Of a DNA stretch of 30,151 nucleotides, positions 1 through 8,807 are shown piece after piece. The position numbers and the translations under genes are program-made. This DNA comes from a virus. The notes under the pieces are model-generated. The model was not told where the DNA came from and did not search any database. It was given only the letters and a program-made list of their open reading frames with translations. The stretch is from IMG/VR virus record IMGVR_UViG_3300038696_000292, positions 1 to 30,151 of that record. One strand, 5' to 3'. How positions within the stretch are numbered: position 1 is the first letter of the stretch; every line of letters begins with the position of its first letter.

Positions 1-729
1 CAGCCGGGGTGGTACATCACGGAGCCCATTAAGCAGGAGAATGACTTGCTCAGTAGCAAAGAAGACATTCTAGACAAGATCAAGAGCTTCATGGCAGGCA
101 ACCAGAAGGTCATTTATGATGAGGCGCGCGGGGTCCTCGCTACGCAAGATGCCAACCTTGCCTATATTGATCAGGCGGCGTCGGGTCATATACGCGGCGT
201 GCTGGATGATCCCGCGTGTTTTAAAGGGTCGTCGATCCAGGCGCTTAAATCTGATCTGCTGTCATTGAAGGAAAAGGTTGACCTGCAGGTGCTGTCGGAA
301 CGCAAGGCTGTGCAAACAGCGATTGCTGACGCGCGTGATAAAGTTCTGCAGACGGCAGAGTTCCAGGCTTTGTCGCCAGACAATCAGGCAAGGATCCAAT
401 CGCAGTTTGAAGCCCATGCCACGGGCCTTGATCAGGTGTCGGGGATTGCGGTTTTGCGTGATCGCGCCAATGGGATCAGCCGGGGGCTGGTGCCGCAGAT
501 GTTGGCTGAGATCGCGACTTTGGCGCGTCCGGTGGCACCCGTGGGCAATGATGATGATATCCCTAACTCGCCCATTCCGGCGCCTGTGGCCTATGTGAAC
601 GCTTCCGATATCAAGAATGGCTACAGCCAGCCCTATATTGCTGATGAGGACGATCTCGACCGCTACCTTGAAGAGATCAAGAAAACCCTGCTGGTGGAAC
701 TCCGCGCAGGCAAGAAGGTGATTGTCTGA
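1..729 (+). CDS. brxC: BREX-1 P-loop ATPase BrxC, C-terminal part (5' end outside window)
   Basis: This is the 3' end of a large gene: the frame is open from base 1 and encodes 242 visible residues ending at a TGA. The TTG at 46 is not a start, because the frame continues upstream (QPGWYITEP...). The visible part is alpha-helical and charged, with a central helical stretch and a closing segment of the form Y-L-E-E-I-K-K-T-L-L-V-E-L-R-A-G-K-K. That ending is typical of BrxC, the roughly 1,200-residue P-loop NTPase of BREX systems. The ATPase motifs would lie upstream of the window. The stop codon shares one base with the pglX start (TGATG), so the two genes are translationally coupled. Identity rests on the C-terminal pattern plus the order brxC-pglX-pglZ-brxL, and confidence is high. 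Confidence 0.9.
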   Translation, partial: QPGWYITEPIKQENDLLSSKEDILDKIKSFMAGNQKVIYDEARGVLATQDANLAYIDQAASGHIRGVLDDPACFKGSSIQALKSDLLSLKEKVDLQVLSERKAVQTAIADARDKVLQTAEFQALSPDNQARIQSQFEAHATGLDQVSGIAVLRDRANGISRGLVPQMLAEIATLARPVAPVGNDDDIPNSPIPAPVAYVNASDIKNGYSQPYIADEDDLDRYLEEIKKTLLVELRAGKKVIV

Positions 730-3700
730 TGGATACCAACGCACTCAAGAAGTTCGCCCAGGCGGCCCGCAACCTGCTGATTGATCAGGTCACCTCCAAG
801 CTTGACCTTGTTTTGGTCGATGGCAGCGCTGCGTGGCGCGAACACCCGCAAGCGATGAAGGATCTGGATGCGGCGATTGCGCGAGACGGCAGGCAGCAGG
901 TCATTGAGCAAGTGGCCTATACCTGGTTCAACCGTTTCACTGCACTGCGGTTTATGGATGCCAATGATTACACCTCGGTCGGGATCGTCTCGCCTGCTGA
1001 CGGGCAAACCCGCCCTGAAATCTTGTCCGAGGCGATGGCGGGCAACTTTCCTGAGGATGCGCCGGAACGGGTTGTGGCGCTGCTGGATGGTCGTATCCCT
1101 TCGTCCGATCCGCAGGCCGAGGCGTACCGGCTGCTGCTGGTCCATGCCTGCAACCAGTGGCACGGGCCGATGCCCTTTATGTTCGAGCAGATCGACGACT
1201 ATTCTGAGTTGCTGATGCCCGAGGATCTGCTGTCGCAAACCTCCATCCTGGCGGAGGTGCGCGCCGTTATGACGGATGATGCCTGTCAAGATGTCGAGAT
1301 CATCGGCTGGCTCTACCAGTTCTACATTTCGGAAAAAAAAGACCAGGTCTTCGCGGGCCTCAAGAAGAACCAGAAGATCACGGCCGAGAACATCCCCGCC
1401 GCGACGCAGCTCTTCACGCCGCATTGGATCGTGCGCTATCTGGTGGAGAACTCGCTGGGGCGGCTCTGGTTGCTCAACCGGCCTGACAGCAAGCTGGCCG
1501 AGCGGATGGACTACTACATCGCGCCGGAAGAGCCTGAGACGGATTTCCTGAAAATCACCAAGCCCGAGGACATCCGCATCTGCGATCCCGCCGCCGGGTC
1601 GGGGCACATGCTGACCTATGCCTTCGATTTGCTCTACGCCATCTACGAGGAAGAGGGATATGACGCGACCGAGATCCCCGCGCTGATCCTCACGCACAAC
1701 CTGACGGGGGTCGAGATTGATGACCGCGCGGGCGCGCTGGCGGCCTTTGCGCTGGCGATGAAGGCGGCGGCCAAGCTGGGGCGGCGGCGGTTTTTGCGGA
1801 TGGAGGCGAAACCCGACATCTGCGTTTTGCAAAACGTGGCCTTTACCGATGCCGAGATGCAGGACGTCGCCGCCGTGGTGGGGCGCGATCTGTTTACGGA
1901 CGCGCTGCGCGAGACGCTGGGGCAGTTCGAGCAGGCCAAGAACTTCGGATCGTTGATCGTGCCGAAGCTACGCGATCCGGCAGAGGCGCTACGGGTGGTG
2001 GAGGCCAAGCGGCTCGACAGCGATCTGTTACTGCGACCTGTGCTGGACCGCCTCGCAAAAGTGCTGCTTATGGCAGAGGCGTTGTCGCCGAGGTATCACA
2101 TGGTAGTGGCCAACCCGCCGTATATGGGCTCGAAAGAAATGAACGGGAAGCTGGGAGACTTCGCAAAGGAGCAGTATCCGGACAGCAAGTCTGACCTCTT
2201 TGCCATTTTCATGGAACGAACCCTTCGAATGTCGGTCAACCACGGCATGATGGCGATGATTAACATGCAGTCTTGGATGTTCCTTTCCTCTTTTGAGAAG
2301 CTGCGTGGCAAGCTGCTGTCTAATGCAACACTCTTGTCCATGGCGCATTTGGGTGAACGCGGTTTTGACACCATTGGCGGCGCAGTCGTCTCGACCACGG
2401 CCTTTGTCTTCCAAAATGCGCACCACGCTACATTCAAAGGCAACTATGTGCGCCTTGTGGATGGCGCGAATGAGGCCGAGAAAGCTGCTCAAATGCAGGA
2501 AGCCATCAAAAATAACGATTGCGGCTGGTTCTATCGCGCATCAGCAAAAGACTTTGAGAAAGTTCCGGGTATCCCGATTTCGTATTGGCTATCTGATACA
2601 TTCAGAAGTGCATTCAGTGGTGAGAACTTCGTTTCTAAAGCTACGCCGATACAGGGTATCATCACTGGAAAAACAGATCATTTTTTGAGGCTTTGGCCTG
2701 AGATAGGTTACAATAACGTCCGAAAACCAAGTGAACCCACAGACAATCAATATTGGGTCCCCTACGCCAAAGGTGGCGAGGGCCGCAAATGGTATGGGAA
2801 TAATGAGCACCTTCTAAATTGGAAAAATGAAGGGCGAGATCTTGTAAGATCCCGATCAACGAACTCCAAATATTATTTTCAACCGTGTTTAACTTGGACT
2901 TTGATTACGTCCTCTGATTACACCGCGAGATATTGTCCAGAGGGCTTCCTATGGGATGTGGCAGGTTCAATCGCTTTTCCAAACCCGCCGCAACGAATAG
3001 AACCCCTGCTGGGTTTTCTTTGTTCTAATGTTTGCAGAATAATGTTGAAATCAACAAATCCAACAATGAATACAAACATTGAGAATATCGAGAACCTTCC
3101 GATTAGGGAGCCGAACTTACATTCGGCAATTGAAATCTTCGATAGTGCCGTAGGCATCGCCAAGTCTGACTGGGACGCCTACGAAACCTCATGGGATTTC
3201 ACTACGCTCCCGCTGCTCCACCCCGACCACCGCGCCGAGACGATGGAACACACCTACACCACCCTGCGCACCCATTGGCAGGGCATGACGGACGAAATGC
3301 AGCGGCTGGAGGAAGAGAACAACCGCATCTTCATCGACGCCTACGGGTTGCAAGACGAGCTGACCCCCGAGGTGCCATTGAACGAAATCACTCTCACCTG
3401 CAACCCCGCCTATCGCTATGGCATCAAGAACGACGCGGCGGCCAACGAGGCCCGCCTGCGCGCCGATACCATGGCCGAGTTCCTCTCCTACGCCGTGGGC
3501 TGCATGTTCGGCCGTTACAGCGTTGATGCCCCCGGCCTGATCCTCGCCAATCAGGGCGAGACACTGGCTGAATACCTCGCCCGTATCCCCGAGCCGTCTT
3601 TCACGCCCGACGATGACAACGTCATCCCTGTGCTCGACGCGGATTGGTTCGCCGACGACATCACAGAGCGCTTTCGCCTGTTCCTGCGCGTGACCTTCGG

Positions 3701-4196
3701 CGAGGACCATTTCCAAGAAAACCTGCGCTATATCGAGGACGCGCTTGGCAAGGACCTGCGCAAATACTTCACCAAGGACTTTTACGCCGACCACGTGAAG
3801 CGCTACAAGAAACGCCCGATCTACTGGTTGTTCTCCAGCTCCAAGGGCAGCTTTCAGGCGCTGGTCTATATGCACCGCTACCGCTCTGACACCGTCTCGG
3901 TCGTGCTGAACGACTACTTGCGCGAATACATCAGCAAGCTTGAGGGCGAACGCGGGCGGCTGGAAAAGCTGTCTGATGACGCAAGTGCTGGCCAGGCCCA
4001 GCGCACCAAGGCGCTGAAAGATATGGCTGGTGTCGGTAAACAGATTGAAGAGCTGAATGCCTGGGAACGCGATGTGGTCTTTCCGATGGCGCAGCAAAAG
4101 ATCGAAATTGATCTCGACGATGGCGTCAAAGCGAATTACCCGAAGTTCGGCACCGCGTTGAAAAAAATTCCCGGGTTGGAAGCCAAGAATGACTGA
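729..4196 (+). CDS. pglX: BREX-1 adenine-specific DNA methyltransferase PglX
   Basis: The product has 1155 residues, a normal length for PglX. It is the modification enzyme of type 1 BREX: it methylates an adenine in a non-palindromic site on host DNA and is also needed for exclusion of unmodified phage. SAM-binding motif I is DPAAGSGH at residues 286-293, and catalytic motif IV is NPPY at 462-465, typical of gamma-class N6-adenine methyltransferases. The start ATG overlaps the brxC stop by one base, and the 3' end overlaps pglZ by 8 bases. Residues about 621-814 (bases about 2590-3170) are encoded by distinctly AT-richer DNA than both flanks. This is the region after motif IV where the target-recognition part is expected. 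The C-terminal third returns to GC-rich DNA and is charged and helical. Confidence 0.95.
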   Translation: MDTNALKKFAQAARNLLIDQVTSKLDLVLVDGSAAWREHPQAMKDLDAAIARDGRQQVIEQVAYTWFNRFTALRFMDANDYTSVGIVSPADGQTRPEILSEAMAGNFPEDAPERVVALLDGRIPSSDPQAEAYRLLLVHACNQWHGPMPFMFEQIDDYSELLMPEDLLSQTSILAEVRAVMTDDACQDVEIIGWLYQFYISEKKDQVFAGLKKNQKITAENIPAATQLFTPHWIVRYLVENSLGRLWLLNRPDSKLAERMDYYIAPEEPETDFLKITKPEDIRICDPAAGSGHMLTYAFDLLYAIYEEEGYDATEIPALILTHNLTGVEIDDRAGALAAFALAMKAAAKLGRRRFLRMEAKPDICVLQNVAFTDAEMQDVAAVVGRDLFTDALRETLGQFEQAKNFGSLIVPKLRDPAEALRVVEAKRLDSDLLLRPVLDRLAKVLLMAEALSPRYHMVVANPPYMGSKEMNGKLGDFAKEQYPDSKSDLFAIFMERTLRMSVNHGMMAMINMQSWMFLSSFEKLRGKLLSNATLLSMAHLGERGFDTIGGAVVSTTAFVFQNAHHATFKGNYVRLVDGANEAEKAAQMQEAIKNNDCGWFYRASAKDFEKVPGIPISYWLSDTFRSAFSGENFVSKATPIQGIITGKTDHFLRLWPEIGYNNVRKPSEPTDNQYWVPYAKGGEGRKWYGNNEHLLNWKNEGRDLVRSRSTNSKYYFQPCLTWTLITSSDYTARYCPEGFLWDVAGSIAFPNPPQRIEPLLGFLCSNVCRIMLKSTNPTMNTNIENIENLPIREPNLHSAIEIFDSAVGIAKSDWDAYETSWDFTTLPLLHPDHRAETMEHTYTTLRTHWQGMTDEMQRLEEENNRIFIDAYGLQDELTPEVPLNEITLTCNPAYRYGIKNDAAANEARLRADTMAEFLSYAVGCMFGRYSVDAPGLILANQGETLAEYLARIPEPSFTPDDDNVIPVLDADWFADDITERFRLFLRVTFGEDHFQENLRYIEDALGKDLRKYFTKDFYADHVKRYKKRPIYWLFSSSKGSFQALVYMHRYRSDTVSVVLNDYLREYISKLEGERGRLEKLSDDASAGQAQRTKALKDMAGVGKQIEELNAWERDVVFPMAQQKIEIDLDDGVKANYPKFGTALKKIPGLEAKND

Positions 4197-6701: not shown

Positions 6702-8807
6702 ATGAGTGACCTGAACGCCAAGATCAATGAACACTTCGCGGGCTTTGTGGTGCGCAAAGACCTGGTGAAGGCGGTTAAGGGCAATGCCATCGTCCCAACC
6801 TATGTTCTGGAATATCTGCTGGGCCAATATTGCGCGACCGATGATGAAGCATCGATCCAAACGGGCATTGAGACGGTCAAGGACATCCTGCGCAAACATT
6901 ATGTCCACCGCAGTGAGGCGGGGCTAATCCAGTCCACGATCAAGGAAAAGGGCCGGTACAAGGTCATCGACATGGTCAGCGTGGCGCTGAATGAGAAGAC
7001 CGACAGTTACGAGGCGACTTTTGAAAACCTCGGGATCAAAAAAGTTGCCGTGGACAGTGGCACGGTAAAACAACACCCGAAGCTACTTGTCACAGGCGTC
7101 TGGTCGATTGCCGATGTGCAATATGAATACTCCGAGGATGCCCGGGTCTCGCCCTGGATCTTGGAAGCCATCAAGCCGATCCAGATTGCCAAGGTCGACT
7201 TTGAGCAATTCAAGTCAGCACGCGCGGCCTTCACCACGGATGAGTGGATCGACATTTTGATGCAGAGCATCGGGTTCAATCCAGAGGCGTTCGGACGGCG
7301 CAGCAAGCTTTTGCAACTGATGCGGCTGATTCCGTTTGTTGAGCGCAATTACAACATGATCGAACTGGGCCCGAAGGGCACCGGTAAATCTCACATCTAT
7401 TCGGAGTTCTCGCCGCATGGTCAGCTGATCTCGGGAGGCGAAGTCTCGACCCCCAAGCTTTTTGTGAACAACGCGAATGGCCGGATTGGTCTCGTCGGGT
7501 TCTGGGATGTGGTCGCCTTTGACGAATTTGCCGGTCGCGACAAGAAGGCCAATCGGGCCTTGGTCGACATCATGAAGAATTACATGGCCAATAAATCATT
7601 CTCGCGTGGCGTGACCTCCATTGGAGCTGAGGCCAGCTTTGCGTTTGTGGGCAACACCGACCACAACGTGCCGTTCATGCTCAAAAACAGCGATCTTTTT
7701 GAAGCGCTTCCGGCGCAGTTCCACGATTCAGCATTCATCGACCGTCTGCACGCTTATCTGCCGGGCTGGGAAATCGACGTAATCCGCACCGAAATGTTCA
7801 CTTCCGGCTATGGGTTCATCGTGGATTACCTGGCCGAGATTCTGCGCAAGCTGCGCTCGGATGACTTCTCCAATCGGGCGGATGCGTTCTTTAAGGTGGG
7901 GGCGCAAATCTCGACGCGCGACCGCGATGCAATTTTCAAAACGCTGTCAGGCTATCTCAAGCTCATTTTTCCAGACGGGGGCGAAACGGAGGATGACGTC
8001 GAGGATATGCTGCGGATTGCAATGGAAAGCCGCAAACGGGTGAAAGACCAGCTGGCCCGGATCGACAGCACCTATCCGGATGTGGATTTCCATTACGTGG
8101 GCTCTGACGGTCAGAAGCGATCAGTCACGACGGTTGAGGAGGAAGAGTTTCCGCAGTTCTATCATCTTAAGCCGGCACTTGATCCAAAGGAGCAGGGCCA
8201 GGAAGGAGAGGAGACATCTGCAGAGGCTGCAACAGGGGAGGACGTTGGCGCAGGCGCACCTGCGACCGTATCAGAGCCTGTCGAGGACCAAGGCAAACAA
8301 GCAGACCCGGTGACGCCAGTCCTTGAAGAAGGCCACAAAGTCTTCACGGAAAACCGCAAGGGCGTCAGTTATGACACTCTTTTTGGGCCCTATATTGATG
8401 GTGCTTCGCGGATCATCGTGACCGATCCCTACATCCGCTACTTTTATCAGACCCGCAACATGATGGAATTTGTGGAAATGGTCATCCGCCGTAAGGCGCC
8501 GGAAGACCAGGTTGCCGTTCATCTCGTGACCGGCGCTGATGATGGTAATGTCGGACAGCAGCGCGAACTGCTTGAATCGATCAGCACGGCCTGCCTTGGG
8601 TCCGGGGTCGAGTTCACATGGGGCTTTGATGCGTCGGGTACAGCGCATGCCCGGGATATTGTCACGGATACCGGCTGGAAGATCGTCCTCGATCGTGGGC
8701 TGGATATCTTTCAAGCGCCTGTGAAAACTGGTGGGTTTTCGCTCAGCGACCGAATGCAGGAGCACAGGATGCTGAAGGGGTTTTATGTGACGTATGTGCG
8801 GACTTAA
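6702..8807 (+). CDS. brxL: BREX-1 AAA+ protein BrxL with MIT_C-like C-terminal domain
   Basis: The product has 701 residues. The N-terminal part (1-200) matches BrxL in style. The AAA+ core has Walker A GPKGTGKS (223-230) and Walker B VVAFDE (270-275), and BrxL AAA+ rings bind DNA. Residues about 490-550 form a Glu/Ala/Gly/Pro-rich linker. From about 555 the protein does not look like the Lon protease domain. Instead it reads like the C-terminal domain of human MITD1, which has a phospholipase-D fold without a working HKD pair. Matching signatures are YDTLFGPY (557-564), TDPYIR, then QTRNMMEF, HLVT, HARDI, and DTGWKIVLDRGLDIF followed by FSL. The RBS AAGGA overlaps the pglZ stop. It is the last recognised BREX gene of the operon. 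The family call is firm; the domain call comes from sequence memory, not a profile search. Confidence 0.9.
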   Translation: MSDLNAKINEHFAGFVVRKDLVKAVKGNAIVPTYVLEYLLGQYCATDDEASIQTGIETVKDILRKHYVHRSEAGLIQSTIKEKGRYKVIDMVSVALNEKTDSYEATFENLGIKKVAVDSGTVKQHPKLLVTGVWSIADVQYEYSEDARVSPWILEAIKPIQIAKVDFEQFKSARAAFTTDEWIDILMQSIGFNPEAFGRRSKLLQLMRLIPFVERNYNMIELGPKGTGKSHIYSEFSPHGQLISGGEVSTPKLFVNNANGRIGLVGFWDVVAFDEFAGRDKKANRALVDIMKNYMANKSFSRGVTSIGAEASFAFVGNTDHNVPFMLKNSDLFEALPAQFHDSAFIDRLHAYLPGWEIDVIRTEMFTSGYGFIVDYLAEILRKLRSDDFSNRADAFFKVGAQISTRDRDAIFKTLSGYLKLIFPDGGETEDDVEDMLRIAMESRKRVKDQLARIDSTYPDVDFHYVGSDGQKRSVTTVEEEEFPQFYHLKPALDPKEQGQEGEETSAEAATGEDVGAGAPATVSEPVEDQGKQADPVTPVLEEGHKVFTENRKGVSYDTLFGPYIDGASRIIVTDPYIRYFYQTRNMMEFVEMVIRRKAPEDQVAVHLVTGADDGNVGQQRELLESISTACLGSGVEFTWGFDASGTAHARDIVTDTGWKIVLDRGLDIFQAPVKTGGFSLSDRMQEHRMLKGFYVTYVRT

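What the first reader, a model, noticed from the sequence alone, without database searches (positions are those of the whole stretch)
6702..8807. BrxL whose Lon-like part is replaced by a MITD1-type (MIT_C) domain
The AAA+ core is standard (Walker A 223-230, Walker B 270-275). The last 145 residues align by eye with the C-terminal domain of human MITD1: YDTLFGPY, DPYIR, QTRNMMEF, HLVT, HARDI, DTGWKIVLDRGLDIF, FSL in the same order and spacing. MITD1's domain has a phospholipase-D fold and binds membrane lipids. A BREX effector with such a domain could use a membrane or nucleic-acid contact in place of a protease-like part. The adjacent membrane-anchored protein makes a membrane link worth considering.
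Basis: partly seen in the sequence, partly recalled or inferred. Interest (0 to 1): 0.78.

Follow-up and report, generated by a model that had tools for sequence, protein, structure and literature searches.

The report
BrxL with a MITD1-type PLD-fold tail
This phage-linked bacterial defence protein really does end in the same domain as the human cell-division protein MITD1, but this kind of BrxL is already known and common; what is unsettled is whether the domain cuts DNA, as the literature assumes, or only binds something.

Summary
The ORF at 6702-8807 is a 701-aa BrxL in a type-1 BREX operon. Residues 1-480 are standard BrxL, about 485-540 are a disordered linker, and 554-700 are a full Pfam MIT_C domain (136.9 bits, cut-off 25). 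The domain model matches solved human MITD1 at Z 22.7, 1.4 Å. No Lon part remains. It is not new: a 2023 PADLOC BrxL profile covers it end to end, and a 2026 paper reports 1030 of 2913 type-1 BrxL taxa with the Lon-like domain replaced by an 'HKD-endoDNase' with an HRD motif. I take this to be the same domain (inference; that text does not name MITD1). The membrane idea is weak: neighbours are not conserved and relatives are swapped among DNA-directed defence proteins. The nuclease reading is likelier but unproven: the catalytic Lys is Arg, GSxN is replaced by GRGLD, and Asp656 is often Asn. Human MITD1 groups with one set of bacterial BrxL tails (48% identity) and keeps their invariant pocket residues. 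In passing: in a related 62-kb phage contig the whole BREX operon, with BrxL-MIT_C, lies inside the phage gene order.

The parts
6702..8807 (+). brxL, 701 aa: BrxL N-terminal and AAA+ core, disordered linker, C-terminal MIT_C (PLD-fold) domain
6729..7124 (+). BrxL_N domain (residues 10-141; PF20442)
   Evidence: E 1.2e-48
7155..8090 (+). BrxL AAA+ ATPase domain (residues 152-463; PF13337)
   Evidence: E 3.8e-129; Walker residues invariant
8145..8324 (+). flexible linker, residues about 482-541
   Evidence: pLDDT under 50 over 492-537
8361..8801 (+). MIT_C / MITD1-type PLD-fold domain (residues 554-700; PF16565)
8646..8669 (+). H-x-R-x4-D motif, residues 649-656 (HARDIVTD), at the place of the PLD-family HxKx4D
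   Evidence: H and R nearly invariant, D replaced by N or S in 14 of 98 and 11 of 46 sequences
8694..8705 (+). RGLD, residues 665-668, near the place of the PLD-family GSxN
   Evidence: both samples partly selected on this motif
1..729 (+). C-terminal part of brxC (open at the window edge)
729..4196 (+). pglX (BREX-1 adenine methyltransferase)
   Evidence: NF033452, 1443.9 bits
4189..6690 (+). pglZ type A
   Evidence: TIGR02687, 800.5 bits
9113..9643 (+).

Best explanation
It is a type-1 BREX BrxL of the known class whose C-terminal Lon-like domain is exchanged for a PLD-fold MIT_C module. The N-terminal and AAA+ parts most likely assemble into an ATP-driven ring on DNA, as in the solved BrxL (inferred by homology). 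The MIT_C module hangs on a linker of about 55 residues (predicted) and most likely acts on the captured phage DNA through its conserved polar pocket (H649, R651, R665, D668, with D575, Y577, R579, Q583, N586, R689). I think it more likely than not that the pocket handles a phosphodiester of DNA: either cutting it, probably as a two-domain composite site between protomers, or gripping it. Shown: the architecture, the fold, the conservation, the operon. Inferred: the DNA target, the pairing of domains, any cleavage.
For: Architecture and fold. Type-1 operon context. Known class: PADLOC BrxL profile over the whole length; 1030 of 2913 type-1 BrxL taxa with an 'HKD-endoDNase' and HRD motif. Weaker fold matches include PLD-family nucleases: SauUSI Z 9.6, NgoAVII Z 8.8, NucT Z 8.2. 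The polar pocket residues are nearly invariant across bacteria, one archaeal genome bin and human. The module recurs in other defence contexts: a Druantia DruE-like helicase, a weak match of one BrxL tail to Menshen NsnC (E 5e-5), a second MIT_C protein beside a BrxL. 36 of 43 MIT_C loci from HMM-based genome searches sit next to a BrxL core.
Against: The PLD-family catalytic Lys is Arg in essentially all members; GSxN is replaced by GRGLD; D656 is N or S in 11 of 46 and 14 of 98 sequences, so the published 'HRD triad' is not strict. MITD1, with the same pocket, is reported as a PI(4,5)P2 binder. The fold matches include lipid enzymes as well as nucleases. A profile-profile comparison with PLDc_2 sequences gave no alignment. 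No measured activity is reported in the text I could read.
Confidence: 0.6

Rival explanations
1. The MIT_C module is a pseudo-enzyme scaffold: it replaces the Lon-like domain in holding two BrxL rings tail to tail, or docks other BREX proteins, without catalysis.
For: In the solved BrxL the C-terminal domain joins the two rings. The canonical PLD Lys and GSxN are missing here.
Against: Strict conservation of a polar pocket, including in non-BrxL proteins, is more than a scaffold needs. A long disordered linker is a poor way to hold rings together. In the solved BrxL, two interface mutants still restricted phage like wild type.
Confidence: 0.22
2. Membrane recruitment: the domain binds acidic phospholipid as MITD1's does and places BrxL at the inner membrane, where phage DNA enters.
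For: Strong homology to MITD1, which is listed as a PI(4,5)P2 binder. One relative carries MIT_C on a dynamin-like GTPase. The window has a membrane-type gene downstream.
Against: That gene is not conserved beside BrxL-MIT_C. MIT_C also sits on a helicase-type defence protein. The MITD1-like set is only one part of the family and the window's domain is not in it.
Confidence: 0.12
3. Chance resemblance or mis-called domain.
For: None.
Against: E 6e-40 in Pfam, Z 22.7 in structure.
Confidence: 0.01

Closest known systems
BrxL-HKD class of type-1 BREX (NAR 2026, gkag035, PMC12839542) and PADLOC BrxL profile PDLC02508
   Same: BrxL N-terminal and AAA+ parts, Lon-like domain replaced by a PLD-fold domain with an HxR..D motif; PADLOC profile covers residues 1-701
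   Different: Nothing in architecture. I inferred, and could not check in the supplement, that its HKD-endoDNase is PF16565. Its 'HRD triad' is not strict in my sample (D often N).
Human MITD1 C-terminal domain (PDB 4a5z, 2ymb)
   Same: Same Pfam family, same fold (Z 22.7, 1.4 A), same pocket residues apart from D656 to N
   Different: MITD1 has an N-terminal MIT domain for ESCRT-III and no AAA+ part. The window's domain is not among the bacterial ones closest to MITD1.
BrxL with Lon-like C-terminus (PDB 8emc, 8emh)
   Same: Residues 1-480, Z 46.5, 47% identity
   Different: Its C-terminal domain is Lon/RadA-like and joins the rings; absent here
PLD-family restriction nucleases (SauUSI, NgoAVII, BfiI, NucT)
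   Same: Fold (Z 7 to 10), and an H-x-[KR] motif in corresponding order
   Different: Catalytic Lys and GSxN are not kept in MIT_C

Membership tests
Type-1 BREX BrxL | BrxL_N and BrxL AAA+ domains with intact Walker A and B | tested here: met
Type-1 BREX BrxL | encoded with brxC, pglX, pglZ type A | tested here: met
   brxA and brxB lie beyond the window edge but are present in the related contig
Type-1 BREX BrxL | Lon-like C-terminal domain (majority class) | tested here: not met
   TIGR02653 and solved BrxL stop at residue 481. Also absent in the published HKD class
MIT_C (PF16565) | score over Pfam's cut-off, whole profile | tested here: met
   136.9 bits against 25, positions 1-142/142
MIT_C (PF16565) | MITD1 C-terminal fold | tested here: met
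   Z 22.7
MITD1 protein | N-terminal MIT domain | tested here: not met
   none
HKD (PLD-family) endonuclease | PLD fold | tested here: met
   Z 7 to 10 to several PLD enzymes; a moderate Z alone proves little, but MITD1 itself is described as a PLD fold
HKD (PLD-family) endonuclease | HxK catalytic pair | tested here: not met
   Arg in place of Lys in all but one sequence, where it is Cys
HKD (PLD-family) endonuclease | GSxN motif after the HKD | tested here: not met
   GRGLD or DRGLD
HKD (PLD-family) endonuclease | DNA cleavage | not testable with these tools
   needs an assay
Membrane-binding domain | binds acidic lipid | not testable with these tools
   needs a liposome assay

The most novel reading that the evidence does not exclude
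The PLD-fold domain of the human abscission protein MITD1 belongs inside the radiation of a prokaryotic anti-phage module, best known from BREX BrxL, and both keep one non-canonical pocket (HxR plus RGLD) whose chemistry has been overlooked in both the defence and the ESCRT field.
Probability: 0.35. Interest if true: 0.75.

Novelty: new member of a known kind. Interest (0 to 1): 0.35.

Why it matters
About a third of type-1 BREX BrxL proteins are reported to carry a domain in place of the Lon-like part that the literature calls a nuclease from its motif, while the same domain in MITD1 is known as a lipid binder. The pocket is kept from bacteria to human, so one pair of assays (DNA cleavage and lipid binding, wild type against H/R/D mutants, for BrxL and MITD1) would settle a disputed step in BREX restriction and show whether MITD1 is a domesticated defence domain.

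Tried and rejected
hhalign of the MIT_C alignment with six PLDc_2 domains gave no alignment, so the equivalence of HxR with HxK rests on fold and motif order, not on a sequence profile. Weak PF16565 hits at profile positions 59-125 in genomes are ABC transporter ATPases, false positives. A test whether the eight MITD1-like bacterial domains exclude human MITD1 could not decide between sister and nested (p-AU 0.54). The 2012 MITD1 structure paper and the Menshen domain paper are not held. Paper searches found no text linking MITD1 or PF16565 with BREX evolution; one paper lists PF16565 among BREX Pfams.

Full report
What is there. The ORF at 6702-8807 (+) is a 701-residue BrxL, fourth gene of a type-1 BREX run: brxC (open at the window edge), pglX, pglZ type A, brxL. 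Its first 480 residues are ordinary BrxL: BrxL_N 10-141 and BrxL AAA+ 152-463, superposing on the solved BrxL 8emh at Z 46.5, with Walker residues invariant in 27 aligned relatives. Residues 492-537 are predicted disordered. Residues 554-700 are a full-length MIT_C domain, PF16565, 136.9 bits against a cut-off of 25.

Is the MITD1 match real? Yes. phmmer finds MITD1 in the PDB at E 4e-16 with the window protein alone. A profile of 67 domains fetched here finds MITD1 at E 6e-43 with no other significant hit. The AlphaFold model of the domain (pLDDT 94.8) matches MITD1 at Z 22.7, 1.4 A over 149 residues; the next matches are mostly PLD-fold proteins at Z 7 to 10: SauUSI, phosphatidylserine synthase, NgoAVII, PLD3/PLD4, NucT, Tdp1, BfiI, the FAM83 DUF1669 domain. 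No Lon domain is found: matches to the Lon-tailed model TIGR02653 and to solved BrxL stop at residue 481.

Is it new? No. PADLOC's 2023 BrxL profile PDLC02508 covers residues 1-701 with 1158 bits, so the class was in a public library. A 2026 paper (PMC12839542) reports 1030 of 2913 type-1 BrxL taxa in which the Lon-like domain is replaced by an 'HKD-endoDNase' with a Lys-to-Arg change, and suggests it degrades invading DNA. The window's H649-x-R651-x4-D656 fits that description; that the paper's domain is PF16565 is my inference, since its text does not name MITD1 and its supplement was not readable. Another paper lists PF16565 among BREX Pfams. In HMM-based samples, genomes with a match over the cut-off were 7/398, 1/295, 27/395, 5/296 and 3/294, the five phyla being those of a Halochromatium, a Methanophagales archaeon, a Gillisia, a Rhodococcoides and a Planctomycetota genome; each sample includes its own centre genome and a few weak hits, so the counts are slightly high. 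36 of 43 such loci have a BrxL core beside the domain.

What does it do? The residues under constraint are polar: H649 and R651 (98/98 and 97/98), D575, Y577, R579, Q583, N586, R665, D668, R689. Human MITD1 keeps all of them, with N at D656. Columns 664-671 were partly forced by how loci were found, so their invariance is inflated; H649, R651, D656, Q583, N586 and R689 were not forced. In motif order the set reads H-x-R-x4-[DN]-x7-[GD]-R-G-L-D, against H-x-K-x4-D-x6-G-S-x-N in PLD enzymes (the latter from general knowledge of the family). So the published call of an active HRD triad is weaker than stated: Lys and GSxN are both changed and the Asp is N or S in 14 of 98 and 11 of 46 sequences. 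Yet a conserved polar pocket across bacteria and human argues for a ligand or a reaction, not a bare scaffold. BrxL assembles on double-stranded DNA and in the solved form its C-terminal domain joins rings, although two interface mutants there did not lose restriction. My best reading is a DNA-directed module on a tether, nuclease or phosphodiester binder.

Why not membrane? MITD1 is listed as a PI(4,5)P2 binder, and one MIT_C relative is a dynamin-like GTPase, so the idea is not absurd. But the window's membrane-type gene has no relatives in 72,556 plasmid records and lies beside no other BrxL-MIT_C I looked at; other carriers include a Druantia DruE-like helicase, an IF2_N protein and a Sel1-repeat protein.

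Evolution. The test could not tell sister from nested, only one eukaryotic sequence was available, its branch is long, and the tree is unrooted. The window's domain lies elsewhere in the tree.

Setting. The window is a virus record of 30,151 bases: BREX on the + strand, then phage tail and head genes on the - strand. Two other viral contigs, L002 and L004, have the same junction, with phage proteins 62-82% identical to the window's. In L002's 62-kb contig the order is tail genes, BREX (brxL back to brxA and a WYL regulator), other genes, integrase, terminase, a type III restriction pair, portal, contig end. Since tail genes open the contig and the portal closes it, the phage gene order runs round a circle with BREX inside. 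So this BREX is most likely phage cargo; for the window itself this is by similarity.

Noticed in passing
window 1-30151; L002, L004, L176-L178: The BREX operon abuts the tail-fibre end of a temperate-phage late operon in three contigs. In the 62-kb contig of L002 a whole BREX operon plus a type III restriction pair lie within the circular phage gene order with integrase, terminase and portal, so BREX looks phage-carried.
   Followed up: partly
L003 and L006: BrxL-MIT_C tails also lie near genes resembling gene-transfer-agent tail genes (judged by eye).
   Followed up: no
L021-L034, detail L026/L173 and L033/L174: BrxL-MIT_C in operons that look neither type 1 nor type 4: DUF4007 protein, Eco57I-type methyltransferase, SspC/BrxC-like ATPase, PglZ-like protein, BrxL-MIT_C. 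The 2026 paper says HKD-fused BrxL is specific to type 1.
   Followed up: partly
L008:4616-7471: Plasmid protein of Thiodictyon with Dynamin_N and a C-terminal MIT_C.
   Followed up: partly
L149:1-1932: Druantia DruE-like helicase (2168-aa frame) with MZB and C-terminal MIT_C.
   Followed up: partly
L092:10123-11052: A 310-aa non-BrxL MIT_C protein about 0.7 kb downstream of a BrxL-MIT_C in the same locus; its N-terminal part has no family match.
   Followed up: partly
L136:790-3411; L007:5452-6501: MIT_C with Sel1 repeats, and MIT_C with an IF2_N domain.
   Followed up: no
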